Assembly (NCBI RefSeq): GCF_029338555.1
Contig: NZ_CP119989.1
Span: 1-64,000 of the forward strand
Direction: 5' to 3'
Source of the DNA: Halobaculum marinum
Lineage (GTDB): Archaea > Halobacteriota > Halobacteria > Halobacteriales > Haloferacaceae
DNA length: 64,000 nt
The position numbers and the translations under genes are program-made. Below are positions 36,597 to 54,147 of the stretch, piece by piece. Under the pieces are notes generated by a model. The model did no database searches, was not told the DNA's origin, and was given only the letters and a program-made list of their open reading frames with translations. Position 1 is the stretch's first letter. Every line of letters begins with the position of its first letter.

Positions 36597-36676
36597 CGCT
36601 CCCGGAACCCGGCCGCACCGACCGCCTCCACAACTCTTACGCGCCGACGCCACACCCGGACGGTAGAGACCCCTCC

Positions 36677-38139
36677 ATGGCGAACACCGACGCGCGCGTC
36701 GACATGACCGAGGGTGCGGTGACGCCACGGCTGTTCAGCCTCGCGTGGCCGCTCGTGCTCGGCAACCTCCTGCAGACCCTCTACAACCTCGCGGACGTGT
36801 TCTGGGTCGGCCGCGTCAGCCCCGAGGCCGTCGCCGCCGTCTCGCTGATGTTCCCCCTCTCGTGGATGTTCGTCTCCACGGCGATGGGGCTGACCGCCGC
36901 GACCATCGCGCTCGTCTCCCAGCACGTCGGCGCCGGCGACGACCGCGCCGCCGACAAGGTGGTCGCGCAGACGACGCTGCTGGCCATCGCCGTGTCGGTG
37001 ACGCTCGGGACCGCCGGCTTCCTCGCACGCCGGCCCCTGCTGAACTGGATCGGCGCGGAGGGCCTCGTGTTCACCGAGGCGCTCGCGTACATCGAGGTCA
37101 TCTTCCTCACCCTCCCGCTCACGTTCCTGTTCTTCGCCTTTCGCGCCTCCCTGCAGGGTGCCGGCGACACACGCACCGCGATGTGGATCGTCGCCGTCTC
37201 CGCCGGCGTCAACATCGTCATCGACCCCGTGTTCATCCTCGGCTTCGGTCCAGTCCCGGCGATGGGCACCCGCGGGGCCGCGCTCGCGACGTTCGTCGCC
37301 CGTGCGATCGCCGCCGCCGTCGGCGTGTACGTCCTGCTGAAGGGCGATTGGGGCATCCAACTCCACCCGCGCGATCTGAAACCGGACCCGACGGTGCTCC
37401 GGCGACTCGTCGACATCGGCTACCCCGGCACGCTCGACGGCTGGGCGCGCTCGTTCGCCGCGGTCGCGATGGCGGCGCTGGTCGCACGCTTCGGCCCCGC
37501 CGCGACCGCGGCGTACGGCGTCGGCGTCCGCCTCATGTCCGTCTCGTGGACCGTCGCCGGCGCGGTCGGGCAGGCGACCGCCACGGGCGTCGGGCAGAAC
37601 CTCGGCGCCGGCACGCCCGACCGCGCGGGCCGCGTGGCGTGGACGGCCACGGGTGGGACGATGGCGGTGCTGTTGGCGGTGGGTGGGCTCGTCTGGGTCT
37701 TCCCGGCGGTCGCCATCCGCGTGTTCGTCGCCGACGCCGCCGTCGTCACGGAGGGCGTCTCGTTCCTCCGGATCACGGCGCTCGCGTGGGCGGCGTTCGG
37801 CGGCCTGATGGTGTTGCAGGGGCCTTCCGGGGCGCCGGCGACACCCGCACCGCGATGGGGCTGTCGCTGCTGTCGCGGTGGGGCCTGCGCATCCCGGCGG
37901 CGCTGGTGCTGGCCTACTCGTTCACCGTCGTCGTCCCCGGCATCGGCCCGGTGTCGGGGCTCGGCCTCGGGCCCGACGGCCTGTGGTGGGCGTGGACGTT
38001 CGGCGCCGTCGGCTCGCTCGTCGTCGGCGCGCTGTGGTTCCTGCGAGGGACGTGGACCGAGGGTGTGGTCGAGCGAGAAAACGAGGAGACGGTGGCCGAC
38101 GACGGCGCGGACAGCGCCCCCGCGGTCGACGACGACTGA
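36677..38139 (+). pseudogene. MATE family efflux transporter, frameshifted as given
   Basis: The N-terminal two thirds are a clean MATE protein: FSLAWPLVLGNLLQTLYNLADVFWVGRVSPEAV, RASLQGAGDTRTAMW, and helices to GGLMVLQG. At the gggg run 37819-37822 one base is missing. The neighbouring frame then gives AFRGAGDTRTAMGLSLLS (the second internal repeat of the same motif), PAALVLAYSF and the stop at 38139. The restored length is about 487 residues with 12 helices. These proteins export organic cations with Na+ or H+ in exchange. Sequencing error is likely because every other feature is intact. Confidence 0.8.
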
Positions 38140-38172
38140 GCAGGCAGAAAAGAATCCAGAGCGTTCGGTCGG

Positions 38173-39690: not shown

Positions 39691-39762
39691 CGTTGAAGCG
39701 GGCTTTGCGACCGGACAGGTAAAGCCTGACGGGACGCCGATCCGTCGATTCGGTGTCCGTCG

Positions 39763-40125
39763 TCAGTCGTCGCGCTCGAACTGCGTCAAGAACACGCCCA
39801 GCGCGACGAGGAGCGCGAACGCCTCGACGGCGTCGCGGACGAGGGTCGTGAGATCGGCCCACGCCCGCCCGAACACGTCCCCGGGGACGGCGTAGAACAG
39901 GTCGGTGAACAGGTCGAACGCCGCGTACACCACTCCCGCGGTGACGAGGCCGAGCGCGTACACACCCATCGCGAGCACGGCGTATCGGACGATCCGTGCG
40001 ATCGGGAGCGGATCGTCGGGGAGGAGTCGGTCGACTGCCGATCGGACACGGATGGCGACCGGGACGAGCGGGCCGGGGACGACTCTGACGAGCGAACGAT
40101 CGGAGGGCATCGAGACAGAGGTCAT
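39763..40125 (-). CDS. hypothetical membrane protein with two helices
   Basis: This 120-residue protein has two hydrophobic segments, IVRYAVLAMGVYALGLVTAG and AVEAFALLVALGVFLTQF, with VYAAFDLFTDLFYAVPGDV between them. The end is QFERDD. The ATG at 40123-40125 is chosen; others lie three codons upstream and five codons downstream. It has no known family that I can name. Confidence 0.55.
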   Translation of the reverse strand: MTSVSMPSDRSLVRVVPGPLVPVAIRVRSAVDRLLPDDPLPIARIVRYAVLAMGVYALGLVTAGVVYAAFDLFTDLFYAVPGDVFGRAWADLTTLVRDAVEAFALLVALGVFLTQFERDD

Positions 40126-40173
40126 CGCAGGCACGGTAAGCCCCTTGTGGTCACCGGGAACCAGCGGAGGGCA

Positions 40174-40404
40174 CTACCGCGCGTACAACTTCGCGCCGAG
40201 CAATCCCGTCAACTGCGACCGGTCGGCGGGCGACACCGCGACGTACGGGTGCTCGACCGGGCCGAACACGTCGACGACGCGCCCGACCGTCGACAGCGAC
40301 TCGTCGACGACCTCGCTGCCGACGCGGGCCGGTTCGGTCCCCTCGGGGACGCGCACGACGGCCAGTCCCTGTGCGGTGCGGACGACGTCGCCGACGCGCT
40401 TCAC
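40174..40404 (-). CDS. gar1: H/ACA ribonucleoprotein subunit Gar1
   Basis: This 76-residue beta-barrel protein has KRVGDVVRTAQGLAVVRV, SEVVDESLSTVGRVVDVFGP, and VEHPYVAVSPADR, the Gar1 pattern that contacts the Cbf5 thumb loop in RNA-guided pseudouridylation. The start is a GTG (40402-40404), 9 bases after the SRP19 stop, which implies co-transcription. Confidence 0.9.
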   Translation of the reverse strand: MKRVGDVVRTAQGLAVVRVPEGTEPARVGSEVVDESLSTVGRVVDVFGPVEHPYVAVSPADRSQLTGLLGAKLYAR

Positions 40405-40413
40405 GGCGCCACC

Positions 40414-40695
40414 TCAGTCCCCGCGGATGACGCCGAGGTAGGCGCCGACCGCCTGCACGAGGTCGTTCTTCGCGGTCTCGTCGGTCCCCGTCACGACGAC
40501 GCTGCCGCGGGGCTCGTACTCCCGACTGTACGTCTTGTCGCGTTCGATCTTCGCGTCGTAGCCGACCTGCTGGACGGCCTTCGCGATCTCGTCGACCGTC
40601 GGCTCCGACACCGCGAGGTCTTCGGGGACGCGTCGCCCCTCGGCGCGGGTGTACGCCGCGTCGAAGTAGGCGGGGTAGAGGACGTTCTCGACCAT
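40414..40695 (-). CDS. srp19: signal recognition particle protein SRP19
   Basis: This 93-residue protein starts [20 protein letters not shown] and has [22 protein letters not shown] and [14 protein letters not shown], the RNA-binding parts of SRP19. It clamps the tips of helices 6 and 8 of 7S RNA so that SRP54 can bind. It precedes gar1 on the same strand. The start is the ATG at 40693-40695. Confidence 0.93.
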
Positions 40696-40772
40696 ACGGC
40701 GAACGCCGGCGCCCGCGCGGAAAAAGGGTGCTATCGTCGGGCGACCGCGACGACGCCAGCCGGACCGCGGTC

Positions 40773-41213
40773 TTATCGCCCGCGCTCGGACTCGCGCTCG
40801 CGCCGGCGGCGGTCCTCCACGTCCTCCAGCGACTCCGTCTCCAACAGGCGGTCGAGTTTGCGCTCGAACTGCTCGTCGGTCAACTCGCCGCGCGCGTAGC
40901 GCTCGCGGAGGGTGTCGAGGGCGTCGCGCGTGTCGGGGTCCGTCGGGGGTTCCGCGAGGTGGTCGTCCGCGTCCTCGTTCGATCCGCTGAGGCCGTCGAG
41001 CCCGTTCACCTCCTCGTCCCACCACTCCTCGATGTCGTCTTCGTCGCCGAACAGCATCGCCGTCAGCGGGACGACCACGACGTAGCCGAACAGCAGCGCC
41101 GCCAGCCACCAGTCTTGCCCGGAGAACAGCGCCGCCAGCCAGATCCCCGTGACGAGGGTGCTGACGACGGCCGTCGCGTTCTCGCGGAGGCGGTCGGCGG
41201 CGCGCTCGTTCAT
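40773..41213 (-). CDS. SHOCT domain two-helix membrane protein
   Basis: This 146-residue protein has two hydrophobic segments, [17 protein letters not shown] and [20 protein letters not shown]. An acidic linker and a SHOCT motif near residues 112-135 ([22 protein letters not shown]) follow, with an Arg-rich end. It has the same architecture as many haloarchaeal SHOCT proteins, whose role is unknown. The ATG at 41211-41213 marks the start of the amphipathic N-terminus. Confidence 0.75.
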
Positions 41214-41271
41214 GTGGGTTCGGTCCCCGTGGCGGGAGATAAAACCGAGGGAGGCGTCGATCGTCTGTCGA

Positions 41272-42507
41272 TTACTGCTCGCGGCGCGCCAGCAGCGCCG
41301 AGGCGAGCACCGCCAGCACCGCCAGCACGACGCCGAAGCCGGGACCGGACGTCTCGGTCGCCGGCGTTTCGTCGACGACGCTCGGCGACGTGGTGTCGGT
41401 GATCGGTTGACTCTCCGTGGCCGTCGGCGTCCCGGTCCCCATCGCCGCCACCGCCTCCGCGCGCGTCTCGAACTCGACGGTCGCGGTCGCGTCGGGGTGG
41501 AACCCACGCGTCAGCGTCCGTACGCTCATGACGACCGAGCGCGGCGCGGGCTGGTTCAGCCAGTTGCGGTTCACCCGCACGGTGTTGTTGTTCTGCACCG
41601 CGGGCGTGCTCGCGTACGGCTCCTGCCCAACGAGGTACGAGGAGAAGTCAGTGACGACGAGGTAGTCGGGCGCCAGTTCCAGCACGACCTCGTCGTTGAT
41701 CTGCGGGTAGCCGGTGAGGTCGCGCTCGGCGGCGACGTTCGTGCCGCCGGCGGCCTCGATCATCGCGGAGATGAACGTCCCCGACCCGGCGACGTAGCCG
41801 CCGCCGAGCGGGTACAGCGCGCGGACGTCCTCGGCGTCGGCGGTCGCCTCGCCCGCCGTCTCGACGTTCGCGGTCATCCACGCGTTCGCCTCGGCGGCGC
41901 CCTCGCAGTTGCCGGTCAGGCGACCGGTGCGCGTCGTCTTGGCCGCCACGTCGTCGACGGTCGTCGACTCGCGGAAGTGGTACACCGTCAGTCCCGCGTC
42001 ACGGAGCGACTGGATCGTCTCCGCCGAACTCGCGTTCGGCGCGAGCACGAGGTCGGGGTTCGTGCCGACGACCTTCTCGACGCTGACGCCGAAGCCAGAC
42101 GCAGAGACGTTCGTCCGCGAGTCGGCGCCGTCGAGGTACAGCGCGAACTGACTCAGGCCGACGACCTGCGCTTTCCCGCCGATCTCCCACATCGTCTGGG
42201 CCGCGCTGGGGTTCAGCGTCGTCACGCGGTCGGGTCGCTCGTCGAGCGTGACTTCGGTTCCGGTGGCGTCCGTGAAGGTCACCGGGAACTCGCAGGCCGC
42301 CGTCTGCGCGCTCGCGGCGCCCGTGGCGCTCGCTGGGTCCGTCGCCGGACCGGTCGGCCCCAGCGCGCTCGGCGTGCCTCCGTCGGTCGATACCGTTGAT
42401 GCCGTCGCTGGCGCCGTCGTCGCCGCCGCGGCCCCGACCGCGGGGACCGCCGCAGCGACGAGCAGCAGCGCCGCGACCACGAGTGTCCGTGTCCGTCGTC
42501 GTCTCAC
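41272..42507 (-). CDS. btuF: PGF-CTERM-anchored corrinoid ABC transporter substrate-binding protein
   Basis: This 411-residue exported protein has an N-terminal signal after RRRRTRT (LVVAALLLVAAAVPAVGA). A Ser/Thr/Ala-rich spacer follows, then a BtuF/FepB-type binding domain (VTLDERPDRVTTLNPSAAQTMW and ETIQSLRDAGLTVYHFRES). A Thr/Pro stalk leads to a PGF-CTERM tail (GPGFGVVLAVLAVL plus a basic end), the sorting signal cut and lipid-modified by archaeosortase A (gene at 61.9 kb). The start is the GTG at 42505-42507. It is divergent from btuC with 59 bases between, in a cluster that fits corrinoid uptake. Confidence 0.85.
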   Translation of the reverse strand: MRRRRTRTLVVAALLLVAAAVPAVGAAAATTAPATASTVSTDGGTPSALGPTGPATDPASATGAASAQTAACEFPVTFTDATGTEVTLDERPDRVTTLNPSAAQTMWEIGGKAQVVGLSQFALYLDGADSRTNVSASGFGVSVEKVVGTNPDLVLAPNASSAETIQSLRDAGLTVYHFRESTTVDDVAAKTTRTGRLTGNCEGAAEANAWMTANVETAGEATADAEDVRALYPLGGGYVAGSGTFISAMIEAAGGTNVAAERDLTGYPQINDEVVLELAPDYLVVTDFSSYLVGQEPYASTPAVQNNNTVRVNRNWLNQPAPRSVVMSVRTLTRGFHPDATATVEFETRAEAVAAMGTGTPTATESQPITDTTSPSVVDETPATETSGPGFGVVLAVLAVLASALLARREQ

Positions 42508-42524
42508 GTCACCAGGCAACCGGA

Positions 42525-42566
42525 CAAGACAATAAATATTTACCTAATGCAAACAGCCTTGAGTTC
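42525..42566. promoter_or_regulatory. shared divergent promoter of btuF and the cobalamin operon
   Basis: The 59-base gap between btuF (minus, start 42507) and btuC (plus, start 42567) has a central AT block aataaatatttac (42531-42543) containing the palindrome aaatattt (42534-42541). It lies about 25 bases before each start, so one symmetric TATA element may serve both directions. The rest of the region is too short for a leader RNA or riboswitch. Confidence 0.55.
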
Positions 42567-43706
42567 GTGACACGCATCTGGCGTCGAACCGCCGGCTACT
42601 CGGTCGCCCTCCTCGCGCTGTTGTGCGGGGTCGTCACCGTGAGCGCCGGCGTCGGGCCGGTCGCGGTGCCCGCGCGGTCGGTGGTGGCCGTCGTCGCCAA
42701 CGCCGTCGTCGTCCCCGCGGGCATCGACTGGGCCGCCGGCACGGCCACAGGGAGCCCGGCGACCGCGGGGTTCCCGCTACAGGTGCAGTTCGTCCACCCG
42801 TTCGCGTTCCCGGTGTCGCAGACCCACGAGGCCATCGTCATGCGCGTGCGCCTGCCGCGGATCCTGCTGGCGGCGTTCGTGGGCGTGGGCCTCGCGGCCG
42901 CCGGCACCGTGATGCAGGGGTTCTTCCGCAACCCGATGGCCGACCCGGGCGTCATCGGCGTCTCCTCGGGCGCGGCCGTCGGCGCCGTCTCGTGGATCGT
43001 CGCGCCCTCCGCGCTGCTGGCGTTGCTCGGACCGCTCCGCCCGCTCCTCGCCGGCGGCGCCGGCCTCCAGATCGCCGCCTTCTGCGGCGCGCTCGTCGCC
43101 GGCTTCGGCGTCTACCTGATCGCCAGCCGCGACGGTCGGACCCCGACGGCGACGCTGTTGCTGGCGGGCGTGGCCGTTCAGACGTTCCTCGGCGCCGTCG
43201 TCTCGTACCTGTTGCTCCACTCGGGGGAGTCGATCCGCCGGGTGACGTACTGGCTGATGGGCCACCTCAGCGGCGCAAGTTGGAGCGAGGTGAGCGTCGT
43301 CGCCGTCCTCGTGCCCGCGCTGACGCTCGTCCTGCTGGCGTACGCCCGCGACCTGAACGTGCTCCTGTTGGGGGAGACGGACGCGCGCGCCCTCGGCGTC
43401 GAGGCCGAACGCAGCAAGCGCGCGCTGCTCGCGGTGTCGTCGGTGCTCACCGGCGTCGCCGTCGCCGTCTCGGGAGTCATCGGCTTCGTCGGCCTCATCG
43501 TCCCCCACGCGGTCCGCCTGCTCGTGGGGCCCGACCACCGGATCCTCCTGCCGACGAGCGCGCTCGCGGGCGGGAGCTTCCTCGTCGTCGCCGACACGGT
43601 CGCCCGCGCCGGCGTCGCCGAACTCCCAGTCGGCATCGTCACCGCCGCCGCCGGCGCGCCGTTCTTCCTGTACCTGCTGCGCACCCGGGAGGTGTACGAC
43701 CTGTGA
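42567..43706 (+). CDS. btuC: corrinoid (vitamin B12) ABC transporter permease BtuC
   Basis: This 379-residue FecCD-family permease has about ten helices. It carries the blocks VRLPRILLAAFVGVGLAAAGTVMQGFFRNPMADPGVIGVSSGAAVGA, SGVIGFVGLIVPHAVRLLVG and LPVGIVTAAAGAPFFLYLLR, all diagnostic of FecCD proteins. The start is the GTG at 42567, 25 bases after the AT block. Specificity for corrinoids is inferred from the cluster; siderophore permeases look alike. Confidence 0.88.
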   Translation: MTRIWRRTAGYSVALLALLCGVVTVSAGVGPVAVPARSVVAVVANAVVVPAGIDWAAGTATGSPATAGFPLQVQFVHPFAFPVSQTHEAIVMRVRLPRILLAAFVGVGLAAAGTVMQGFFRNPMADPGVIGVSSGAAVGAVSWIVAPSALLALLGPLRPLLAGGAGLQIAAFCGALVAGFGVYLIASRDGRTPTATLLLAGVAVQTFLGAVVSYLLLHSGESIRRVTYWLMGHLSGASWSEVSVVAVLVPALTLVLLAYARDLNVLLLGETDARALGVEAERSKRALLAVSSVLTGVAVAVSGVIGFVGLIVPHAVRLLVGPDHRILLPTSALAGGSFLVVADTVARAGVAELPVGIVTAAAGAPFFLYLLRTREVYDL

Positions 43707-44521
43707 GCGACGACCGGTCGAGCGACCCCGAGGACTGCCCGATGATCGCCGTGCGCGACCTGGTCGTCTCCCGCGGCGGCGAGCGCGTCCTCGACGGCGT
43801 CTCGCTGTCGGTGGACCGGGGCGAACTCGTCGGCCTCGTCGGCCCGAACGGCGCCGGCAAGACGACGCTCGTCGCGGCGGTCAACGGGACCCTCACGCCC
43901 GAGGCGGGGACGGTCGAACTCGACGGGACCGACCGATCGACCCTCAGCCAACGCGAGGTCGCCCGCCTCGTGGCGACGGTGCCACAGGAGTCGAACACCG
44001 CCTTCGAGTTCTCCGTCGAGGCGGTGGTGGAGATGGGGCGGACGGCGTACGTCTCGCGGTTCGGGACGACCACCGAGGCCGACCGCGCCGCCGTCGAGCG
44101 GGCGATGGACCGGGCGGGCGTGACGGCGTTCGCCGACCGACCGGTGACGACGCTGTCGGGCGGCGAGCGCCAGCGCGTGCTGTTCGCGCGGGCGCTGGCC
44201 GGCGAGACGCCCGGCCTCCTGCTCGACGAACCGACCGCCAGCCTCGACATCAACCACCAACTGCGCACGCTCGAACTCGTCCGCGAAGTCGTCGACGACG
44301 GGAAGGCTGCGCTGGCGGCCATCCACGACCTCAACCTCGCGGCCCGCGTCTGCGACCGACTCGTCCTCCTGGCGGGCGGCCGGATCCGGGCGACGGGAAC
44401 GCCCCGCGAAGTGCTCGGCGACGACGCACTCGCGGACGCCTTCGGCGTGCGCACGGCCGTCAACGACGACCCCGCGGTCGGGTCGCCGATGGTGACGGCG
44501 CTGCGCGACGACGAGTCCTGA
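43703..44521 (+). CDS. btuD: corrinoid ABC transporter ATP-binding protein BtuD
   Basis: This 272-residue ABC ATPase has Walker A LVGPNGAGKTTLVAAVNG, the Q-loop ATVPQESNT, the signature TTLSGGERQRVLFARALAG, Walker B PGLLLDEPTASLDINHQ and the H-loop AIHDLNLAA. It starts with a GTG that overlaps the btuC stop (GTGA). It powers the importer with BtuC and BtuF. Confidence 0.9.
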   Translation: MSDDRSSDPEDCPMIAVRDLVVSRGGERVLDGVSLSVDRGELVGLVGPNGAGKTTLVAAVNGTLTPEAGTVELDGTDRSTLSQREVARLVATVPQESNTAFEFSVEAVVEMGRTAYVSRFGTTTEADRAAVERAMDRAGVTAFADRPVTTLSGGERQRVLFARALAGETPGLLLDEPTASLDINHQLRTLELVREVVDDGKAALAAIHDLNLAARVCDRLVLLAGGRIRATGTPREVLGDDALADAFGVRTAVNDDPAVGSPMVTALRDDES

Positions 44522-44538
44522 GCGCCGTCGCCCGCTGG

Positions 44539-44600
44539 ACAAGCGTGCTTGTTCTAACGCATCCACAATTGTTATGCTGGGCCGTCGGAGTTGTACGGCC
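44539..44600 (+). promoter_or_regulatory. inverted repeat and promoter-like region before cobT
   Basis: An inverted repeat acaagc-gt-gcttgt (44539-44552) and the palindrome acaattgt (44565-44572) precede the TATA-like ttgttatg (44569-44576). An ATG at 44601 lies 24 bases after the TATA element. This suggests a second promoter and an operator inside the cobalamin cluster, so the salvage genes may be expressed apart from the transporter. Confidence 0.45.
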
Positions 44601-44678
44601 ATGCAACGGGACCAGCCGAACGAGCGGACGGGCGCCGGGAGCGAGGGTGGCGATCCGAGTGCGGCGGGGCGGCCGTGA
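44601..44678 (+). CDS. 25-residue leader ORF overlapping cobT
   Basis: An ATG at 44601 opens a 25-codon frame ([11 protein letters not shown] to SAAGRP) whose TGA at 44676-44678 overlaps the cobT GTG (44675-44677). Its position just after a TATA-like element suggests it is the first translated frame of the message, with coupling into cobT. It has no family. It could instead be untranslated, so its reality is uncertain. Confidence 0.4.
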
Positions 44679-45697
44679 GGCTCGTCGTCGTCGCCGGGAC
44701 CACAGAGACGGCCCGGATCGACGGGATCAGCGCCGCGGGTGCGGACCCGGCGCTGATGCGACACACGCCAGGCGCCGACCTCGACGTGGTCGTCCACGGG
44801 GAGCCGACGCTCGCACCGGTGGTCCCCGTCAGCCCGACCGGCTGTCCGACTCCGGCGGTCGCCACCCGTGCTGCCTGCGAACTGCTCGGCTTCGACGCGC
44901 TCGCGGTCGACGCCGGCGTCGCCGGGCGCACCGGGGCGCCGACGGTCGACGTGGGATTCGGCCCCGGCGCGGACGTGCGCGAGGCCGAGGCGGTGTCGCG
45001 GGCCGCCGAGACGTACGCGAACGCCCGGGAACTGGGAGCCGCGCTCCCCGACGACCGGATCGTGGTCGGCGAGACCGTCCCCGGTGGGACGACGACCGCG
45101 CTGGGCGTGTTGACCGCTCTGGGCGAGGAGCCCACGGTGTCGTCGTCGCTGCCGGAGAACCCGCTCGACCTGAAGCGCCGGGTCGTCGCCGAGGGGTTAG
45201 ACGCGAGCGGCCTCGCCCCCGGCGACGCCGCGGGCGACCCCCTGACGGCGGTGCGAGCGGTCGGCGACCCGGTGCTCGCGGCGGTCGCCGGACTGACCGT
45301 CGGTGCCGTCGAGTCGGGCACCGCGGTGACACTCGCGGGCGGGACGCAGTTGGCGACCGCGGCGGCGCTCGTGCGCCACGCCGGCGTCGAGGCGCCGCTG
45401 ACGCTGGCGACCACCTCGTTCGTCGCGGACGACGACACCGCGGGCATCGCCGACCTGGCGGCGTCGCTGGACCTCGACGTGCGCGCGACCGACCCGGGGT
45501 TCGACGGGCGCGACCACCCCGCGATGGCCGCCTACGCCGCCGGGGAGGCGAAGGAGGGCGTCGGAATGGGCGGGGCACTGGCCCTCGTCGACGACGCGGA
45601 CACCTCGATGGCCGCGTTCCGCGACCGCCTCGTCGACGTGTACGACCGCCTGCTCGCCGACGACGGCGGTGACGCCGACGTAGACGCAGACCGATGA
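44675..45697 (+). CDS. cobT: nicotinate-nucleotide--dimethylbenzimidazole phosphoribosyltransferase-like protein CobT
   Basis: This 340-residue protein of the archaeal CobT branch (COG2038) would make alpha-ribazole phosphate from a base and nicotinate mononucleotide, giving the lower ligand of cobalamin. Visible blocks are [55 protein letters not shown] and [12 protein letters not shown]. The start is the GTG at 44675, which begins the conserved [14 protein letters not shown] strand; the upstream open frame is unlike the family. It overlaps cbiA by four bases. Confidence 0.85.
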
Positions 45698-46995
45698 AGG
45701 GGGTCGTGCTCGGCGGCACAGCGTCCGGCGTGGGGAAGACCGTGGCGACGCTGGCGACGATCACGGCACTCGACCGGGCCGGCCACGCAGTCCAACCGGC
45801 GAAGGCCGGCCCCGACTTCATCGACCCGAGCCACCACGAGCGCGTCGCGGGGCGTCCCTCCCGCACGCTCGACGTGTGGATGCAGGGCGAGGACGGACTC
45901 CGGCGCAACTACCACCGCGGCGAGGGCGACGTCTGCGTCGTCGAGGGCGTGATGGGGCTGTACGACGGCGGCGTCTCCAGCACCGCCCGGGTCGCGGCGG
46001 CGCTGGACCTCCCCGTCGTGCTCGTCGTCGACGCCAGCGCCGGGATGGAGAGCGTCGCCGCGACCGCGCTGGGCTTTCGCGAGTACGCCGCCCACGCCGG
46101 CGTCGACGCGGACGTGGTCGGCGTGATCGCAAGTCGCGCCCACGGCGGGCGCCACGAACGGGGGATCCGCGAGGCGCTGCCCGACGACATCGCGTACCTC
46201 GGCCGAGTACCGCCGGACCCGGATCTGGAGATTCCCGACCGCCACCTCGGCCTCCACATGGGCGCGGAGTCGCCGGTGCCCGAGTCGGCGCTGTCGGCCG
46301 CGGCCAACCACCTCGACGCCGACGCGCTGGTGGATCTGGCCCGCACCCCGCTGCGACCGACGGCGGCGGAACCGGCCCGCGAACGGACCCACGCGCGGGT
46401 CGCCGTCGCACGAGACGCGGCGTTCCGGTTCTGCTACCCCGCGACGCTGGAGCGACTGGCCGAGCGCGCCACGGTCGTCCCGTTCGCGCCGACGACCGAC
46501 GACGCGCTCCCCGACTGCGACGCCGTCTACCTCCCGGGGGGCTACCCCGAACTCCACGCACCCGCGCTGGCGGACTCCAGCGCGCTGGCCGACCTCGCGG
46601 CGCGCGCCGCCGACGGCCTCCCCGTGCTGGGCGAGTGTGGGGGGCTCATGGCCCTGGCGGAGTCGCTGACGACCGTCGACGGCGACACCCACGCGATGGC
46701 GGGCGTCCTGCCGGCGACGGTCCGAATGCACGAGCGGTACCAAGCGCTGGACCACGTGGAACTGCGTGCCCGCGACGACGCGCTCACGGCCGCCGCCGGC
46801 GGGATGCTCCGCGGCCACGAGTTCCACTACTCGTCGGCGGACGTCGCCGCCGACGCCCGCTTCGCCTTCGAAGTCGTCCGCGGCGACGGCATCGCCGACG
46901 GACTCGACGGCCTGCGGGAACACCGGACGCTCGGGACGTACGCGCACGTCCACCCCGAGAGCGGCGCGTTCGACGCCTTCCTGGAGGCGATCTGA
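45694..46995 (+). CDS. cbiA: cobyrinic acid a,c-diamide synthase CbiA
   Basis: This 433-residue enzyme has an N-terminal P-loop synthetase part ([41 protein letters not shown]). A C-terminal class I glutamine amidotransferase follows, with [11 protein letters not shown] and the nucleophilic cysteine in [13 protein letters not shown]. It amidates the a and c side chains of cobyrinate using ATP and glutamine. The ATG overlaps the cobT stop (ATGA). Confidence 0.93.
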
Positions 46996-46996
46996 G

Positions 46997-47704
46997 GTGC
47001 CGGGCGTGGACGGGACGAAGAACGCGGGTGACGACGTGACCGGAGACGAGGGAGCTGCCGGGCGGGTCGCCGCCGTCTCGTTCGACCTGTTCGGGACGCT
47101 CGTCAACGCCGACCGGCCCGCGGATCCGGCGACCGCCGTCGCCCGCGAACTCCGCGAACGCGGGGTCACCGTACCCGACGACTGGGCCGCCGCGTACGCC
47201 GAACCGCACCTCGACTACGACGACGGCGGCGAGCGCCCGCTCCACCACCACGTCGCCGCCGCGCTCGCGAGTCGGACCAGCCTCGCGGAGCGCGAGGTCG
47301 TCGACGACGCCGCCGTCGCGGTGCGAGCGGCGTTCGACGCACCGGTCGAGACGCGCGACGGCGCCGTCGAAGCGGTCGCCACCCTCGCCGAGCGCTACCC
47401 GGTCGGCGTCTGCTCGAACTGCAGCGTTCCGGGCCTCGTCCAGCGGACGCTCGACCGCTCCGCGCTCGACCCCGGGGCGTTCGAGACGGTGACCGCGAGC
47501 GTCGACTGCGGGTGGCGCAAGCCGGACCGGCGGGCGTTCGCGACCGTCGCCGACGGGTTGGGCGTCCCCGTCGACAGCCTCCTCCACGTGGGCGACGACC
47601 CGGCGACCGACGGCGCCGTCGCCGACCACGGCGGGGTCGCGCTGCTCGTCGACGACGTGCCGCTGCGCGACCTGCCGGCGACGGTGGAGGCACGATGGGG
47701 CTGA
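46997..47704 (+). CDS. HAD family hydrolase in the cobalamin operon
   Basis: This 235-residue haloacid-dehalogenase-like protein has motif I SFDLFGTLVNADRP (about residues 26-39), motif II VCSNCS, motif III lysine in CGWRKPDRRAF, and motif IV LHVGDDPATDGAVADHGG. A phosphatase role is likely. It lies between cbiA and cbiB in an almost gapless operon, where alpha-ribazole-phosphate dephosphorylation is otherwise unassigned. That role is inference. The start is the GTG at 46997, one base after the cbiA stop. Confidence 0.85.
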   Translation: MPGVDGTKNAGDDVTGDEGAAGRVAAVSFDLFGTLVNADRPADPATAVARELRERGVTVPDDWAAAYAEPHLDYDDGGERPLHHHVAAALASRTSLAEREVVDDAAVAVRAAFDAPVETRDGAVEAVATLAERYPVGVCSNCSVPGLVQRTLDRSALDPGAFETVTASVDCGWRKPDRRAFATVADGLGVPVDSLLHVGDDPATDGAVADHGGVALLVDDVPLRDLPATVEARWG

Positions 47705-48635
47705 CCGCGCTCGCCGCCGTCGCGCTGGCGGCCGGCCTCGACGCGACCGCCGAGGAGTTCCCGGGCCAGTCCACCCGGTCGCGCTGTTCGGTCGCGTCGT
47801 CGACCGAGTCAACCGCGAGTGGGCCAGACCCACAGCGGTGGGAGTCGCTGTCGCGGTCGTGCTTCCGCTGGCGGCTGCCGCGGTCGCGTGGGGCGTCGTC
47901 ACCGGCGTCGAGCGACTCGTCGCCGCGGTCGTCGTCGGCCCCGGCGGCGCAGTCGCCGCGGCGGTCGCGACGGCGGTCGTGGCGGGCCTCGCGCTGTTCG
48001 CGACGACGAGTCTGCGGATGCTCGTCGGGGCCGCCCGCGAGGTGGTCGCCGCCAGCGAGTCCGACCCCGCGGCCGCGCGGGCGGCGTCGCTCGCGCTGGT
48101 GGGCCGCGACACGTCGTCGCTGTCGCCCGCCGAACTCCGGAGCGCGGCCGTCGAGAGCGCCGCCGAGAACCTCGCCGACGGCCTCGTCGCCCCGTTGCTC
48201 GCCTTCGCCGTCGGCGCGCAGGCGTCGGTCGCGGTCGGCGTCGCCTGCGCCGCGTGGGTGAAGGCCGTGAACACGCTCGACTCGATGCTGGGGTACCCCG
48301 ACACGCCACACGGGACCGCCAGCGCCCGCCTCGACGACGCGGTTATGTGGGTCCCCGCCCGCCTGTCTGCCGTGTTGCTCGCGACCGCCGCGCGGTCACC
48401 GACCGCGCTGTCGACGGCCCGGCGCTGGGCGCGCGCCCCCGCCTCCCCGAACTCCGGGTGGCCGATGGCGACGACCGCCGCCGCGCTGGGGGCTCGCCTG
48501 CGAAAGCGCGACGCCTACGACCTCAACCCCGACGCGCCGCTGCCCACGCCGGCGACCGCCCGCACCGGCGTGCAGACGGTGTCGGTCGCGGGGTGGCTCG
48601 CGTTCCTGCTCGCGGGGGTGGCGGCGTGGCTGTGA
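47695..48635 (+). pseudogene. cbiB: adenosylcobinamide-phosphate synthase CbiB, frameshifted as given
   Basis: The frame from the ATG at 47695 gives LTALAAVALAAGLDATAEEFPG. It then leaves the family pattern at the ggg/cc run 47763-47767, where one base appears missing. The neighbouring frame continues VHPVALFGRVVDRVNREWAR and AVESAAENLADGLVAPLLAF, then VKAVNTLDSMLGYP and LDDAVMWVPARLSAVLL to the stop at 48635. The restored length is about 313 residues with several helices. CbiB attaches aminopropanol phosphate to adenosylcobyric acid. An intact operon makes real loss unlikely. Confidence 0.85.
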
Positions 48636-49399
48636 GCGCGGTGGCCGCCCTCCGGGGCGCGCTCGGCTTCCTCTCGCGCGTGCCAGTCGGCCACAGCGAC
48701 GCTGGCTGGGAGGCGTTCCGACGGACCCCGACGGCGATCCCGGCGGCCGGCTACCTCATCGGCGCGCTCGTCGCCGGCGTCGCCGTCGCCCCCGCCGTCG
48801 TGGTGGGGCTGCCGGCGCCGACGCTCGCGCTCGCGCTCGTCGCCGCCACGTACCTCCTCACTGGAATCACCCACGTCGACGGCGTCGCGGATCTGGGCGA
48901 CGCGGCGGTCGTCCACGGCGACGCCGACGCCCGCAGAGCCGTGCTGAAGGACACCACCGTCGGCACCGGCGGCGTGCTGGCGGTCGCGGTCGTCGTCGGT
49001 GGCCTCGCGCTCGGTGGCCTCGGACTGGCGTCGCTGCCGCTGGGCGCCGCCGTCGCGGTCGTCGTCGCCGCGGAGGTGGGCGCGAAGGCCGCGCTCGCGA
49101 CGCTCGTGTGCGTCGGCCAGTCGGCCCACGAGGGGCTCGGGTCGGCGTTGACGGCGGAGTCGTCGCCGAGGGCCGCCCTCGGCGTCGCCGTCGTGGCCGC
49201 GCCGGTCGTCGCGCTGACGTGGCCCCGTCCCGCCGTCGGCGTCGCCGTGTTGCTCGCGGCCGGCGCGGTCGCCGCGGGGACGCTCCGCTGGTCGCGCGCC
49301 CGCCTCGGCGGCGTCAGCGGCGACGTGTTCGGCGCGACGAACGAACTCGCCCGGGTCGCCGGGCTCCACGCGGGGGTGGTCGCGTGGACGCTCTCGTGA
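48632..49399 (+). CDS. cobS: adenosylcobinamide-GDP ribazoletransferase CobS
   Basis: This 255-residue integral membrane protein opens ALRGALGFLSRVPVG and has the block ITHVDGVADLGDAAVVHGD with the metal-binding aspartates. GGVSGDVFGATNELARVAGLHA lies near the end. CobS joins adenosylcobinamide-GDP and alpha-ribazole (or its phosphate), completing the nucleotide loop. The start is a GTG overlapping the cbiB stop (GTGA). Confidence 0.92.
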   Translation: MSAVAALRGALGFLSRVPVGHSDAGWEAFRRTPTAIPAAGYLIGALVAGVAVAPAVVVGLPAPTLALALVAATYLLTGITHVDGVADLGDAAVVHGDADARRAVLKDTTVGTGGVLAVAVVVGGLALGGLGLASLPLGAAVAVVVAAEVGAKAALATLVCVGQSAHEGLGSALTAESSPRAALGVAVVAAPVVALTWPRPAVGVAVLLAAGAVAAGTLRWSRARLGGVSGDVFGATNELARVAGLHAGVVAWTLS

Positions 49400-49968
49400 T
49401 GTGTGGCGGTCGAGGCAGTCGCCTCGGCGGCGACACGGAGAAGCCGCTGGTGCCCGTCGCCGGTGAGCCGATGGTCGAGCGTGTGCGCCAAGCGCTGGCG
49501 GCCAGCCGAGTCGAACGGGTGTTCGCAGCAGTCTCCCCGCACACGCCCACGACCCGCGAGCACCTCGCCGGTCGCGCAGACGTGACCGTGGTCGACACCC
49601 CCGGCGACGGCTACGTCGCCGACCTGGGGACGGCGCTGGAGCGGGTCGGTACGCCCGTCGTCACCGTCGCGAGCGACCTCCCGCTGCTGGCCGGCGACCA
49701 CGTCGACTGCCTCCTCGACCGCTTCGCCGCGGGCGACGGCGTCTCGCTGGCGACGTACGTCCCAGTCGGGGTGAAACACGAGGTCGGCGTCAGCGCCGAC
49801 ACGACGACGAACGTCGACGGGCACACGGTCGCCCCGACGGGGCTGAACCTCGTCGCCGACGGCACGGACGACGAGGCGGTCGTGGTCGCGGACGACCGCC
49901 TCGCGGTGAACGCGAACCGCCCGCGCGACCTGCAGGTCGCGGCGGCGCTGCTGGAGGGTGATCGATGA
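49384..49968 (+). CDS. cobY: adenosylcobinamide-phosphate guanylyltransferase CobY
   Basis: This 194-residue nucleotidyltransferase has the GTP-binding ALVMCGGRGSRLGGDTEKPL, and VTVASDLPLLAGDHVDCLL with the acidic metal site. CobY is the archaeal replacement for bacterial CobU and turns adenosylcobinamide phosphate into the GDP form used by CobS. The GTG start overlaps the cobS end by 16 bases, and its stop overlaps cobD by four. Confidence 0.9.
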   Translation: MDALVMCGGRGSRLGGDTEKPLVPVAGEPMVERVRQALAASRVERVFAAVSPHTPTTREHLAGRADVTVVDTPGDGYVADLGTALERVGTPVVTVASDLPLLAGDHVDCLLDRFAAGDGVSLATYVPVGVKHEVGVSADTTTNVDGHTVAPTGLNLVADGTDDEAVVVADDRLAVNANRPRDLQVAAALLEGDR

Positions 49969-50978
49969 AGTTCGACGCCGCGCGTGACGAGCCGCGAACG
50001 CCCCACGGCAGCAGCGACGACCCCGCAGTGCTCGACTTCAGCGCCAACTGCAACCCCGAGGTGCCCGACGGCGTCGAGGCGGTGTACCGGGAGGCGTTCG
50101 CCGACGCGCGGACGTACCCCCCGGAGCCGCCCCGCGACTACCGCGCCGCCGCGGCGGCCTACGTCGACTGCGCCCCCGACGACGTGGTCCCGACGCCCGG
50201 CGGGCTGGCGGCGATCCGACTGACGATCGATCTGGCCGTCGACCCGGGCGACTCGGTCGCCGTCCCGTTCCCGAGTTTCGGCGAGTACGCCCGCGAGGTG
50301 CGCCTACAGGGCGGAGTACCGACGTTCGTCCCGCAGGCGGAGGTCCTCGAAGTCGACCCCGCCGACCACGCGCTCGTGGTCGTGTGCACCCCGAACAACC
50401 CGACCGGGAACGCGTACCCGGACGACGACCTGCGCGCCCTCGCCGCGCGGTGTCGCGACGCCGGGACGCCGCTGCTCGTCGACGAGGCGTTCCTCGGGTT
50501 CACCGACCGACCGTCGCTGGCGGGCGCCGACGGCGTGGTCGTCGCGCGCTCGCTGACGAAGCTGTTCGGCCTCCCTGGGATCCGCGCGGGCTTCGCCGTC
50601 GCGACCGGTGAGTGGGGCGCGGCGCTGGCGAACGCCCGGCGCACGTGGAACCTCGGGGCGCCCGCGCTGGCGACCGGCGCCTACTGCATGCGACAGGACG
50701 CGTTCGTCCGGGAGACTCGCGACCGGGTCGCGAGCGAACGCACACGGCTGTCGACGGCGCTCGCGGACGCCGGCTACGGCGTCCACCCGTCGGACGCGCC
50801 GTTCCTCCTGCTGGACGTCGGCGACCGCGCGGTCGACGCGGTGCTCGCACACGCCGCCGACGCGGGCGTGGCGCTGCGCGACGCGACGACGTTCCGCGGA
50901 CTCGACAGCCACGTCCGGGTGGCCGTCCGCCTCCCCGAAGAGAACGACCGCCTACTGGAGGTGTTGCGTGGCGCCTGA
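49965..50978 (+). CDS. cobD: threonine-phosphate decarboxylase CobD
   Basis: This 337-residue fold-type I PLP enzyme has LDFSANCNPEVPDGV, VPTPGGLAAIRLTIDLAVDPG, VVVCTPNNPTGNAYPDD, LLVDEAFLGFTD and the cofactor lysine in VVARSLTKLFGLPGIRAGF. Histidinol-phosphate aminotransferases look similar. The operon context and the FSANCNP start favour CobD, which makes aminopropanol phosphate for CbiB. The ATG overlaps the cobY stop. Confidence 0.85.
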   Translation: MKFDAARDEPRTPHGSSDDPAVLDFSANCNPEVPDGVEAVYREAFADARTYPPEPPRDYRAAAAAYVDCAPDDVVPTPGGLAAIRLTIDLAVDPGDSVAVPFPSFGEYAREVRLQGGVPTFVPQAEVLEVDPADHALVVVCTPNNPTGNAYPDDDLRALAARCRDAGTPLLVDEAFLGFTDRPSLAGADGVVVARSLTKLFGLPGIRAGFAVATGEWGAALANARRTWNLGAPALATGAYCMRQDAFVRETRDRVASERTRLSTALADAGYGVHPSDAPFLLLDVGDRAVDAVLAHAADAGVALRDATTFRGLDSHVRVAVRLPEENDRLLEVLRGA

Positions 50979-51753
50979 CCTGCGCGTCCGCGACGGCGTC
51001 CTTGAACTCCGCCGCCCGGCCACGCGCTGGCTGTCGACGGGGTTCGCCGGCGGCTTCGTCGACGCCCCCGCCGCGTACAACGTCTCCGTCCCGGAGGGGT
51101 GGGAGCGCACCGACCTCGACGCGTACGTCGCCGAGCGACTCGCCGGCGCCGGCTTCGAGTCCCCGCCCGACGGCCCGGCGCTGTTGACGGGCGTCGACAT
51201 GCGCCACGCGCGGGCCGCCCGCTCGGGGCCCGTGCTCGCGGTCGCGACGGCGGGCGTCTCCAACCCCGCGGCGCTGCCGACGGCCGACGACCGACCGGTG
51301 GGCGTCGAGGCCGACGCGGTCGCGGGGGCGGATCCCGCCGGCGACTCGACCGGACAGGCGTCCGCCGGATCCCGGAGCGACGGCGCCGACGGGCCGGGTC
51401 GCGGCACGGTGAACGTCCTGCTCGCGACCGAGCGCCGCCTCGACGACGGCGCGCTCGCGAACCTCGTGAGCGTCGCCGCCGAGGCGAAGGCGACCACCCT
51501 GTTGGCGGCGACGGGGTTCCCGGGGACGACGACCGACGCGGTGGTCGCCGGGAGCGCCCGAGACGGCGAGCCCGCGCCGTTCTCCGGGAGCGCGACCGAC
51601 GTTGGGAGCGCCGCCCGGGCGTGCGTCCGCGACGCCGTGCGTGCGAGCCTCGACGCGCGGTACGCCGCCGGCGACCGCGCTTTGCCAGCGTCCGTCGCCG
51701 ACGCCGAGTACGGCGTGGTGACCGACCGTGAGACGGAGGTGTTCCGTCCGTGA
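50968..51753 (+). CDS. cbiZ: adenosylcobinamide amidohydrolase CbiZ
   Basis: This 261-residue protein removes the aminopropanol-linked tail of incoming corrinoids to give adenosylcobyric acid, so that cells can swap lower ligands. Blocks are RRPATRWLSTGFAGGFVDAP, ALLTGVDMRHARAAR, VAVATAGVSNPAALP-like stretches and LLAATGFPGTTTDAVVAGS. A long acidic insertion (about residues 100-147) is halophile-like. The GTG start overlaps the cobD end by 11 bases. Confidence 0.88.
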   Translation: MAPDLRVRDGVLELRRPATRWLSTGFAGGFVDAPAAYNVSVPEGWERTDLDAYVAERLAGAGFESPPDGPALLTGVDMRHARAARSGPVLAVATAGVSNPAALPTADDRPVGVEADAVAGADPAGDSTGQASAGSRSDGADGPGRGTVNVLLATERRLDDGALANLVSVAAEAKATTLLAATGFPGTTTDAVVAGSARDGEPAPFSGSATDVGSAARACVRDAVRASLDARYAAGDRALPASVADAEYGVVTDRETEVFRP

Positions 51754-51790
51754 ACCGACCGACTACCGAGACCACAGCCACGACACGACC

Positions 51791-52510
51791 ATGACCGACG
51801 ACACACACGAGACGACCGACGGCGACCGGACCGACGCGGACGACGACCGCCACGCGAACACGCCCGGGAAGGGCGTCGCCCCCGACGCGCGGGGGATCGA
51901 ACCGAGCGCCCCCGAGGAGTTCGGCCTCGTCCAGACGTGGTGGGGCGACGGCAAGGGGAAGACGACCGCCGCGCTCGGGATGGCGTTCCGCGCCGCGGGG
52001 CACGGCTACCGCGTCCACCTGCTCCAGTTCATGAAGGGCGGCGCCGCCAGCGTCGAGGACGTCCGCGGCGAGTACAACGCCATCGCGGCGATGCCGGGCG
52101 TCACCTACGAGCACTCGGGCCACTACGGCTGGCACGGGATGGCCGACGGCACCGACGAGGTCGACCACGCCGCCCGCGCCGAGGGCGGGTTCGAGCGCGC
52201 GCAGACCCTGGTCGACGGCTGGGCCGACGCCGACCTGACGGCGCCGCTGGCGCTCGACGGCGCTCCCGAGGCCGGCGCCCACATGCTGATCCTCGACGAG
52301 GTGGTGTACGCCGCCAACCGCGGGCTCGTCGACCCCGACGACCTCGTCGCGCTCGCGGAGTCGAAGCCCGACGCGCTGGAACTCGTGCTCACGGGCGGCC
52401 ACGAGGAGCCAGAGTACCTCTACGACGTGTCGGACCTGGTCACGAACGTCCGCAAGGTGAAACACCCGTTCGACGAGGGCCACCGCGCCCGGAAGGGCAC
52501 CGAGTACTGA
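51791..52510 (+). CDS. cobA: cob(I)alamin adenosyltransferase CobA (CobO/BtuR type)
   Basis: This 239-residue protein has an acidic N-terminal extension of about 45 residues, then the P-loop [32 protein letters not shown] and [11 protein letters not shown]. It continues with [29 protein letters not shown] and [19 protein letters not shown]. It transfers the adenosyl group of ATP to Co(I) corrinoid. The ATG at 51791 comes 37 bases after cbiZ. The stop overlaps the cbiP start by one base (TGATG). Confidence 0.93.
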
Positions 52511-54147
52511 TGGTCGACGGCACCGGCGGCGGCGAGCGGGTCGGCGGGCGCGACGAGCGCGGCGTGGTCGGCGACGACACAGACGACCCCGACGACGGCG
52601 ACGCCGCGACGCTGCTCGTCGCCGGCACCGCCAGCCACGTCGGGAAGAGCACCGTCGTCGCCGGGATCTGCCGCCGACTCGCGGACGCGGGCGTCGACGT
52701 CGCGCCGTTCAAAGCCCAGAACATGAGCAACAACGCCCGCGCCGTGGCGACGCCCGACAGCGGCTGGGGAGAGATCGGCGTCTCGCAGTACGTGCAAGCA
52801 CGCGCCGCCCGAATCGCGCCGACGACGGACCTGAACCCCGTCCTCCTTAAGCCCCGCGGCGACGGTGAGAGCCAACTGGTGATCGACGGCGAGGCCGTCG
52901 GCCACTTCGAGGCGGGCAGCTACTACGACGACCACTGGGAGCGGGCGCGAGACGCCGCCGAACGTGCCTACGAGCGCCTCGCCGCCGCTCACGACGTGAT
53001 CGTCGCCGAGGGCGCCGGCTCCATCGCCGAGATCAACCTCCACGACCGCGACCTCGCCAACGTCGAGACGGCACGCTTCGGCGACGCGTCGATCCTCTTG
53101 TTGGGCGACATCGAGCGCGGCGGCGTGTTCGCGAGCCTCTACGGCACGCTCGAACTGGTCCCCGACGACCTCCGCGAGCGCGTCGCCGCGACCGCGATCA
53201 CGAAGTTCCGCGGCGACGCGAGCCTGCTGGAGTCGGGCATCGCCGACCTGGAACGCCGGACGGGCGTCCCCGTCGACGCGGTGCTCCCGTACGACGACCC
53301 CGGCCTCCCCGAGGAGGACAGCGTCTCGCTCCCGCCGCCCGGCGAGCGTTCCCGCCTCGGCGACGACGACGGCGTCGCCGACGACCACGCGGTCACGGTC
53401 GGCGTCCCGCGCCTCCCCCGCGTGTCGAACTTCACCGACCTGTCGCCGCTGGCGCGGACGCCCGGCGTCCGAGTCGCGTACCGCCCGCTCGACGACGACC
53501 TCGCCGGCGTCGACGCGGTCGTCGTCCCGGGGACGAAGAACACCGTGGACGACCTGCTCGCGCTGCGAGCGGGGCGCCTCGGCGAGGCGATCCGGACGTT
53601 CGACGGGCCCGTGGTCGGCGTCTGCGGCGGCTACCAGATCCTCGGCGAGCAGATCACGAACGCCGCCGTCGAGGGTACCGGCGACGCCGAGACGGTCGAC
53701 GGGTTGGGACTCTTGCCGGTGGTGACGCGCTTCAGCGAACAGAAGCGCGTAGAGGCGGTCACGGTCGCCGTCGACGGCGGCGCGGGGCCGTTCGCCGGCG
53801 TCGAGGAAGTCGTCTCGGGGTACGAGATCCACATGGGACGGACCGAGCCGACCGGGGACGGCGACCCGCTCGCGACGCCGCTTGAGCCCGGGAGCGTCGC
53901 CGTCGGCGACGTGGCGGGGACGTACCTCCACGGCGCATTCGAGACCGACGCCGTCCGGGAGGCGTTCGTGGACGCGGTGTTCGCCCACGCGGGGCGTGCG
54001 CGCCCCGACGACGGTTGCGACGCCGACGACGACCCGTACGACGCGGCGGCGGCGCTCGTGGGTGAACTCGACTTTGGACGGCTGTTCGGCGGAGCGGCGC
54101 CGTCGACGGTGGGCGACGCCGACGGCGCGGTCGACGAGGACCGGTAG
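52510..54147 (+). CDS. cbiP: cobyric acid synthase CbiP
   Basis: This 545-residue amidotransferase has an N-terminal acidic extension. The synthetase part follows: [75 protein letters not shown] and [18 protein letters not shown] class I glutaminase domain ends the protein, with [13 protein letters not shown], the cysteine in [15 protein letters not shown] and [10 protein letters not shown]. It amidates b, d, e and g side chains to adenosylcobyric acid, the substrate of CbiB. It is the last gene of the cobalamin line. Confidence 0.95.

What the first reader, a model, noticed from the sequence alone, without database searches (positions are those of the whole stretch)
46997..47704. HAD phosphatase as a candidate alpha-ribazole-phosphate phosphatase
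Nucleotide-loop assembly needs a phosphatase to remove the phosphate from alpha-ribazole phosphate or from the CobS product. Bacterial CobC and archaeal CobZ are not seen here. The HAD gene lies between cbiA and cbiB in a nearly gapless operon and keeps all four HAD motifs, making it a strong candidate for this missing step.
Basis: inference. Interest (0 to 1): 0.6.

Follow-up and report, generated by a model that had tools for sequence, protein, structure and literature searches.

The report
Haloarchaeal HAD enzyme for B12 assembly
Salt-loving archaea carry, next to their vitamin B12 genes, a phosphatase-like gene that probably removes the last phosphate when B12's lower loop is built; this was predicted in 2003 and never tested, and its active site lacks one residue that such phosphatases usually have.

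Summary
The gene is real. A 235-aa HAD-IA protein (46997-47704) lies 1 nt after cbiA and overlaps cbiB in a cobamide operon of a Halobaculum-type haloarchaeon.

The idea is not new. Gene order equates it with HVO_0586/VNG_1577C, for which EC 3.1.3.73 was predicted in 2003 and is listed as open in 2021 (PMC8305020). No test of it was found.

New comparative evidence supports a role in nucleotide-loop assembly. In 67 of 80 named haloarchaeal loci the gene directly precedes cbiB. In a 343-genome phylum sample it occurs in 77 of 87 Halobacteria and 0 of 256 others, whereas CobZ occurs in 0 of 87 and 175 of 256 and sits directly upstream of cobS (80 of 82). Four cobS-less Halobacteria lack it, and a fifth holds it as a pseudogene.

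Three points weaken the claim. Motif I is an invariant D-x-F, not the phosphatase D-x-D. Seven Halobacteria keep cobS without an active copy. A CobC-like histidine phosphatase (110 bits, cut-off 163) is encoded elsewhere in the genome.

Best reading: a third, unrelated alpha-ribazole-phosphate / cobalamin-5'-phosphate phosphatase (confidence 0.6), activity untested. In passing I saw a catalytically dead, apparently constrained second copy.

The parts
46997..47704 (+). HAD-IA family hydrolase, candidate alpha-ribazole-5'-phosphate / cobalamin-5'-phosphate phosphatase (GTG start; alternative GTG start at 47036)
   Evidence: AlphaFold model mean pLDDT 94.2; PDB neighbours all HAD fold
47084..47092 (+). 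Motif I: nucleophile Asp30 (47084-47086) and Phe32 (47090-47092) where D-x-D phosphatases have the acid/base Asp
   Evidence: D 44/44 and F 44/44 in alignment A2; F 51/51
47231..47251 (+). Invariant cap residues Glu79 (47231) and His85 (47249), candidate substrate-binding or acid/base residues (inference)
   Evidence: E 44/44, H 44/44
47414..47422 (+). Motif II: Ser140-Asn141-Cys142
   Evidence: invariant in A2
47519..47521 (+). Motif III: Lys175 (in RKP)
   Evidence: invariant in A2
47594..47611 (+). Motif IV: G-Asp200-x4-Asp205 (Mg-binding acids)
   Evidence: D200 43/44, D205 44/44
45694..46995 (+). cbiA/cobB, cobyrinate a,c-diamide synthase
   Evidence: NF010471 777 bits
47695..48635 (+). 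cbiB, adenosylcobinamide-phosphate synthase; frame broken near 47759 by a likely assembly error
   Evidence: PF03186 3.6e-55; second copy restores the frame
48632..49399 (+). cobS, adenosylcobinamide-GDP ribazoletransferase
   Evidence: TIGR00317 130 bits, over cut-off
49384..49968 (+). cobY, adenosylcobinamide-phosphate guanylyltransferase
   Evidence: NF045495 E 2e-29, below cut-off
44591..45697 (+). cobT, archaeal NaMN-dependent phosphoribosyltransferase (makes alpha-ribazole phosphate)
   Evidence: TIGR00303 243 bits, over cut-off
49965..50978 (+). cobD, threonine-phosphate decarboxylase
   Evidence: TIGR01140 282 bits, just below cut-off
50971..51753 (+). cbiZ, adenosylcobinamide amidohydrolase
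   Evidence: PF01955 4e-40
51728..52510 (+). cobA, corrinoid adenosyltransferase
   Evidence: PF02572 3e-45
52507..54147 (+). cbiP, cobyric acid synthase
   Evidence: PF07685 and PF01656; gene order

Best explanation
The protein is the haloarchaeal phosphatase of nucleotide-loop assembly, a third type unrelated to bacterial CobC (histidine phosphatase fold) and methanogen CobZ (PgpA-like). CobT makes alpha-ribazole-5'-phosphate, CobY makes AdoCbi-GDP, and CobS joins them. The HAD removes the 5'-phosphate, either from alpha-ribazole phosphate before CobS or from adenosylcobalamin-5'-phosphate after it. Proposed chemistry: Asp30 attacks phosphorus, held by Ser140, Lys175 and a Mg2+ bound by Asp30, Asp200/205 and the backbone of residue 32, and the aspartyl-phosphate is then hydrolysed. 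Because residue 32 is Phe, the acid that protonates the leaving 5'-oxygen must come from elsewhere; invariant cap residues His85 or Glu79 are candidates. Shown: fold (predicted), conserved residues, gene linkage, class-wide distribution. Inferred: catalysis, substrate, and the acid residue.
For: Directly upstream of cbiB on the same strand in 67 of 80 named haloarchaeal loci, with cobS and cobY following, and within 2 kb of cobS in 44 of 50 HAD-bearing genomes of the 59-genome sample. Mutually exclusive with CobZ at class level: HAD 77/87 Halobacteria and 0/256 others, CobZ 0/87 and 175/256. CobZ directly upstream of cobS in 80/82 genomes, a comparable position. HAD tracks cobS within Halobacteria: Fisher p 0.001, active copies only 1e-4, relatedness not corrected. 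cobS- and CobT-less genomes G010, G020, G047, G318 lack it and G042 has it as a deleted, frame-shifted pseudogene. Nucleophile, Ser, Lys and Mg acids kept; motif IV is of the phosphatase GD type. Independent published prediction for the syntenic orthologue.
Against: Phe, not Asp, at nucleophile+2 in every active copy; haloarchaeal RuBP 5-phosphatase-type HADs keep D-x-D, and nearest solved structures include dehalogenases. Six Halobacteria with cobS and a CobT lack it (G001, G002, G007, G044, G050, G299), and G026 has only a dead copy. G302 keeps an intact copy without cobS. A CobC-like histidine phosphatase exists in this genome. The constant neighbour is cbiB, so linkage does not single out the phosphatase step.
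Confidence: 0.6

Rival explanations
1. It is a cobamide-pathway HAD phosphatase acting on another phosphate, for example adenosylcobinamide phosphate, aminopropanol phosphate or threonine phosphate, or damaged intermediates made around CbiB.
For: Its constant neighbour is cbiB rather than cobS or cobT. HAD phosphatases are commonly promiscuous (own knowledge). Seven lineages make do without it although they keep cobS and CobT.
Against: No essential phosphatase step is known around CbiB, whereas the step after CobT/CobS has no other assigned enzyme in haloarchaea.
Confidence: 0.17
2. The phosphatase step is done by the CobC-like histidine phosphatase encoded elsewhere (C1:530435-530974) or by other general phosphatases, and the HAD has an accessory role.
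For: TIGR03162 E 1.3e-31 in this genome; similar genes occur in the HAD-less genus g27 (G044, G299). General phosphatases must suffice in G001, G002, G007, G050 and G026.
Against: Score 110 against a cut-off of 163, and nearly the same score for the RNase H/acid phosphatase model; present in only 16 of 63 genomes and absent from most that have cobS; not next to cob genes in the five loci inspected. Pfeiffer 2021 states no CobC homolog in haloarchaea.
Confidence: 0.13
3. It is not a phosphatase: with D-x-F in motif I it acts like dehalogenase-type HADs on carbon bonds, or as a regulatory or structural protein in the operon.
For: Invariant D-x-F; NCBIfam haloacid dehalogenase type II and DREG-2 models among the best matches, all below cut-off; dehalogenases and related carbon-bond HAD hydrolases among fold neighbours. 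Inactive copies that look constrained exist in Halobaculum.
Against: Motif IV is GD-x4-D, the Mg-binding phosphatase form, rather than the S-S-N-x-x-D of 2-haloacid dehalogenases (the latter from own knowledge). YihX-type HADs also lack the +2 Asp yet are phosphatases (own knowledge; YihX appears among matches).
Confidence: 0.1

Closest known systems
HVO_0586 / VNG_1577C (Haloferax volcanii / Halobacterium salinarum), predicted EC 3.1.3.73
   Same: Same place in the same gene order: HVO_0586-0592 corresponds to HAD-cbiB-cobS-cobY-cobT-cobD-cbiZ; VNG_1576G cbiP - 1577C - 1578H cbiB corresponds to Halobacterium loci L106 and L159.
   Different: Equated here by gene order only; their sequences were not compared directly. 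Neither has been assayed as far as found.
CobZ of Methanosarcina mazei (TIGR03161)
   Same: Proposed same reaction, and encoded beside the nucleotide-loop genes, directly upstream of cobS.
   Different: Unrelated protein family; absent over cut-off from all Halobacteria sampled.
CobC of enterobacteria (TIGR03162, histidine phosphatase)
   Same: Proposed same reaction.
   Different: Different fold and chemistry (phosphohistidine); the window protein is a HAD.
HAD-IA hydrolases, DREG-2 group (TIGR02252, HDHD3) and PH0459
   Same: Best family and structure matches; same fold and motif layout.
   Different: 35 bits against a cut-off of 155; functions of that group unknown to me.
Haloarchaeal ribulose-1,5-bisphosphate 5-phosphatase (NF053830)
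   Same: HAD from the same organisms acting on a pentose 5-phosphate; 37 of 44 relatives match weakly.
   Different: Has canonical D-x-D in motif I; a separate gene in the same genome (C1:2693777).

Membership tests
HAD superfamily, subfamily IA | Rossmann-like core with helical cap; motif I Asp nucleophile, II Ser/Thr, III Lys, IV acidic pair | tested here: met
   PF00702 4e-11 and TIGR01549 over cut-off; residues invariant; AlphaFold model and PDB search
HAD phosphatases of the D-x-D type | Second Asp at nucleophile+2 as general acid/base | tested here: not met
   Phe at this place in 51/51 and 44/44 sequences
CobC (TIGR03162) | Histidine phosphatase fold with RHG motif; model score over 162.9 | tested here: not met
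   Not among the family matches of the window HAD; a separate gene in the genome scores 110
CobZ (TIGR03161) | PgpA-like domain, model score over 152.5 | tested here: not met
   Window HAD does not match; genome best 24 bits over half the model
Predicted haloarchaeal alpha-ribazole phosphatase (HVO_0586 family) | Gene directly upstream of cbiB-cobS-cobY in haloarchaea | tested here: met
   67 of 80 named loci; Halobacterium order matches VNG_1576G-1578H
Alpha-ribazole-5'-phosphate phosphatase (EC 3.1.3.73) as an activity | Release of phosphate from alpha-ribazole phosphate or cobalamin-5'-phosphate | not testable with these tools
   needs an enzyme assay
2-haloacid dehalogenases (TIGR01428) | Model score over 125.4; motif IV without Mg-binding pair | tested here: not met
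   28 bits; motif IV is GD-x4-D

The most novel reading that the evidence does not exclude
A third, independently evolved phosphatase of cobamide nucleotide-loop assembly that works with a D-x-F HAD active site, using a cap residue instead of the usual acid/base aspartate, and that took the place of CobZ in Halobacteria; a relocated copy has since become a conserved non-catalytic protein in Halobaculum.
Probability: 0.4. Interest if true: 0.55.

Novelty: already known. Interest (0 to 1): 0.36.

Why it matters
The phosphatase is one of two steps of haloarchaeal cobamide nucleotide-loop assembly and salvage still without an experimentally supported enzyme (the other is threonine kinase). A proven HAD would make this step a case of three unrelated enzymes (CobC, CobZ, HAD) for one reaction, and would show whether D-x-F HADs can be efficient phosphatases. 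The distribution data give clear genomes for testing: with HAD, without it, with a dead copy, and with a pseudogene.

Tried and rejected
PF01966 (HD domain) search was an ill-chosen first query and says nothing here. The CobZ-like ORF at C1:2255578 (L007) was rejected as CobZ: 24.7 bits against 152.5, half the model, no Pfam match, next to a Nudix gene. A true CobC was rejected for C1:530435: below cut-off and not near cob genes, kept as a rival. A replacement phosphatase beside cobS or CobT in HAD-less genomes was looked for and not found among the ORFs read. Loss of HAD explained by loss of CobT was rejected: all seven cobS+ genomes without active HAD have an archaeal or bacterial CobT. A real cbiB pseudogene was rejected in favour of an assembly error. 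The viral structure library gave one strong HAD match (2.4e-10) and nothing informative for function. Rodionov 2003 itself is not held; its prediction is taken from PMC8305020.

Full report
WHAT IS THERE. The window is the first 64 kb of a 2,929,000-base contig of a haloarchaeal genome. The genome shares its genus with G269, whose contig 5 has the length of Halobaculum gomorrense NZ_FQWV01000001.1, so it is Halobaculum-like. The ORF 46997-47704 encodes a 235-residue HAD-IA hydrolase. It starts 1 nt after the cbiA stop codon and overlaps the start of cbiB. The operon reads cobT-cbiA-HAD-cbiB-cobS-cobY-cobD-cbiZ-cobA-cbiP. The first 13-23 residues are not conserved, so translation may begin at GTG 47036. 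The cbiB frame is broken near 47759. The end of the contig repeats window 35933-48951 in the 13 kb compared, with 15 differing sites, mostly short indels in G/C runs; that copy has one more C and an open cbiB. The HAD itself differs by one synonymous base.

ACTIVE SITE. Among 44 haloarchaeal relatives Asp30, Phe32, Tyr67, Glu79, His85, Ser140-Asn141-Cys142, Arg174-Lys175 and Asp205 are invariant and Asp200 is 43/44 (similar in the 51 sequences). The residue two after the nucleophile, Asp in D-x-D phosphatases, is always Phe. Motif IV (GD-x4-D) is of the Mg-binding phosphatase type. The AlphaFold model has mean pLDDT 94.2. Its PDB neighbours are HAD-IA proteins, both phosphatases (NANP, YfnB) and dehalogenases. 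No NCBIfam equivalog reaches its cut-off. Haloarchaeal RuBP 5-phosphatase-type HADs keep D-x-D. From general knowledge, the Mg site uses the main-chain oxygen of the +2 residue, and YihX-type HADs are phosphatases without the +2 Asp, so D-x-F does not exclude a phosphatase but requires another acid. His85 or Glu79 of the cap are the invariant candidates (inference).

GENE NEIGHBOURHOOD. In 80 named haloarchaeal loci, 67 have cbiB as the next gene on the same strand, usually followed by cobS and cobY. What precedes the HAD varies (cbiA, cbiP, cobT, or no cob gene). In the 59-genome sample 44 of 50 HAD-bearing genomes have it within 2 kb of cobS. The six exceptions are five members of genus g2 (Halorubrum) with an active relocated copy and G026 with a dead one. 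The Halobacterium order cobT-cbiA-cobA-cbiP-HAD-cbiB equals VNG_1572C ... 1576G-1577C-1578H, and HAD-cbiB-cobS-cobY-cobT-cobD-cbiZ equals HVO_0586-0592.

DISTRIBUTION. In 343 genomes across the phylum, a profile of the family (E <= 1e-20) hits 77 of 87 Halobacteria and none of 256 others. CobZ (TIGR03161, E <= 1e-10) hits 175 of the 256 and none of the 87. CobZ lies directly upstream of cobS on the same strand in 80 of 82 genomes for which both positions were printed, median gap 41 nt. This is the pattern of a non-orthologous replacement, though one split between clades explains much of it. Within Halobacteria the association with cobS is significant by Fisher test (p 0.001; 1e-4 for active copies), without correction for relatedness. 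Of six genomes without cobS and without either CobT type, four lack the HAD, G042 has a pseudogene with an internal deletion and frame shift, and G302, of the same genus, keeps an intact unlinked copy. Against the claim, G001, G007, G002, G044, G299 and G050 keep cobS and a CobT without the HAD, and G026 has only a dead copy. No phosphatase was seen beside their cob genes. The HAD is therefore not the only solution even within the class.

OTHER CANDIDATES. No CobZ reaches its cut-off in the genome. A histidine phosphatase at C1:530435-530974 matches the CobC model with 110 bits (cut-off 162.9) but matches an RNase H/acid phosphatase model equally well and is not near cob genes. Such genes are in 16 of 63 genomes, including the HAD-less G044 and G299. 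This is the strongest rival for the step itself.

A DEAD SECOND COPY. The genome carries a second, 58-59% identical HAD at C1:2798227, away from cob genes, in which Asp30 is Gly, Ser140 Ala and Asp200 Thr. G269 (Asp30 to Ala, Ser140 to Ala, Asp200 to Ala) and G026 (Ala, Ala, Ala) have similar dead copies. In the tree these group with an intact relocated copy from MAG QS_6_71_20 inside the Haloferacaceae part, whereas the operon copy of Halobaculum branches outside it. A reading that fits is that Halobaculum acquired its present operon copy from elsewhere and the older copy lost catalysis (inference). dN/dS between the two Halobaculum dead copies is about 0.21 (0.143/0.69), no higher than for the operon copy (0.234/0.61), so the dead copies may still be under constraint, though selection before the loss of catalysis contributes to that figure.

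WHAT IS KNOWN. Pfeiffer and Dyall-Smith 2021 (PMC8305020) list HVO_0586 as a prediction for EC 3.1.3.73 after Rodionov et al. 2003 (PMID 12869542, for VNG_1577C) and note no CobC homolog in haloarchaea. A search for HVO_0586 found only that paper. MA0940/Mm2058 CobZ is the methanogen enzyme (PMC3223730). The finding is thus a published, untested prediction. What this work adds is the class-level complementarity with CobZ, the co-decay case, the exceptions, the D-x-F active site and the dead copy.

VERDICT. Best explanation: phosphatase of nucleotide-loop assembly, confidence 0.6. Which of the two substrates is used cannot be decided from sequence.

Noticed in passing
G000:C1:2798227-2798790 (L038:8228-8788); L181:8722-9282; L062:8775-9380: Second HAD copy lacking the nucleophile Asp, motif II Ser and motif IV Asp, intact ORF in two Halobaculum genomes and G026; dN/dS about 0.21, a possible conserved pseudoenzyme.
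   Followed up: partly
window 35933-48951 vs C1:2916000-2929000 (L039): The contig end repeats the window (terminal redundancy of a circular replicon); over the 13 kb compared the two copies differ at 15 sites, mostly short G/C-run indels.
   Followed up: partly
window 47752-47760: cbiB is frame-shifted in the window by a missing C; the second assembled copy is in frame.
   Followed up: yes
window 37818: The MATE-type transporter ORF 36677-38293 changes frame at its C-terminal part; the contig-end copy has one more G there, so this is also likely an assembly error.
   Followed up: partly
G000:C1:530435-530974 (L193:6337-7011): CobC-like histidine phosphatase, 110 bits to TIGR03162 (below cut-off), not near cob genes; patchy in Halobacteria.
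   Followed up: partly
L007:1303-1806 (G000:C1:2255578): 167-aa ORF next to a Nudix gene with a half-length weak match to CobZ/CbiS (24.7 bits); no Pfam family.
   Followed up: partly
L057:8404-8828 (G042); L179:7693-8256 (G302): Two genomes of one genus without cobS or CobT: one keeps an unlinked intact HAD, the other a deleted and frame-shifted remnant.
   Followed up: yes
L058, L060, L066, L089, L092 (genus g2; named Halorubrum loci L136, L160-L167 likewise): In many Halorubrum genomes the HAD has moved away from cbiB but keeps all its catalytic residues where the sequences were aligned.
   Followed up: partly
window 44591-54147: The operon HAD of Halobaculum branches outside the Haloferacaceae part of the HAD tree, hinting that the operon copy was acquired horizontally; trees of the other cob genes were not made.
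   Followed up: partly
G001, G007, G008, G015, G017, G021, G054: These haloarchaea have a bacterial-type CobT (TIGR03160) in place of the archaeal one, away from the cob cluster in the loci read.
   Followed up: partly
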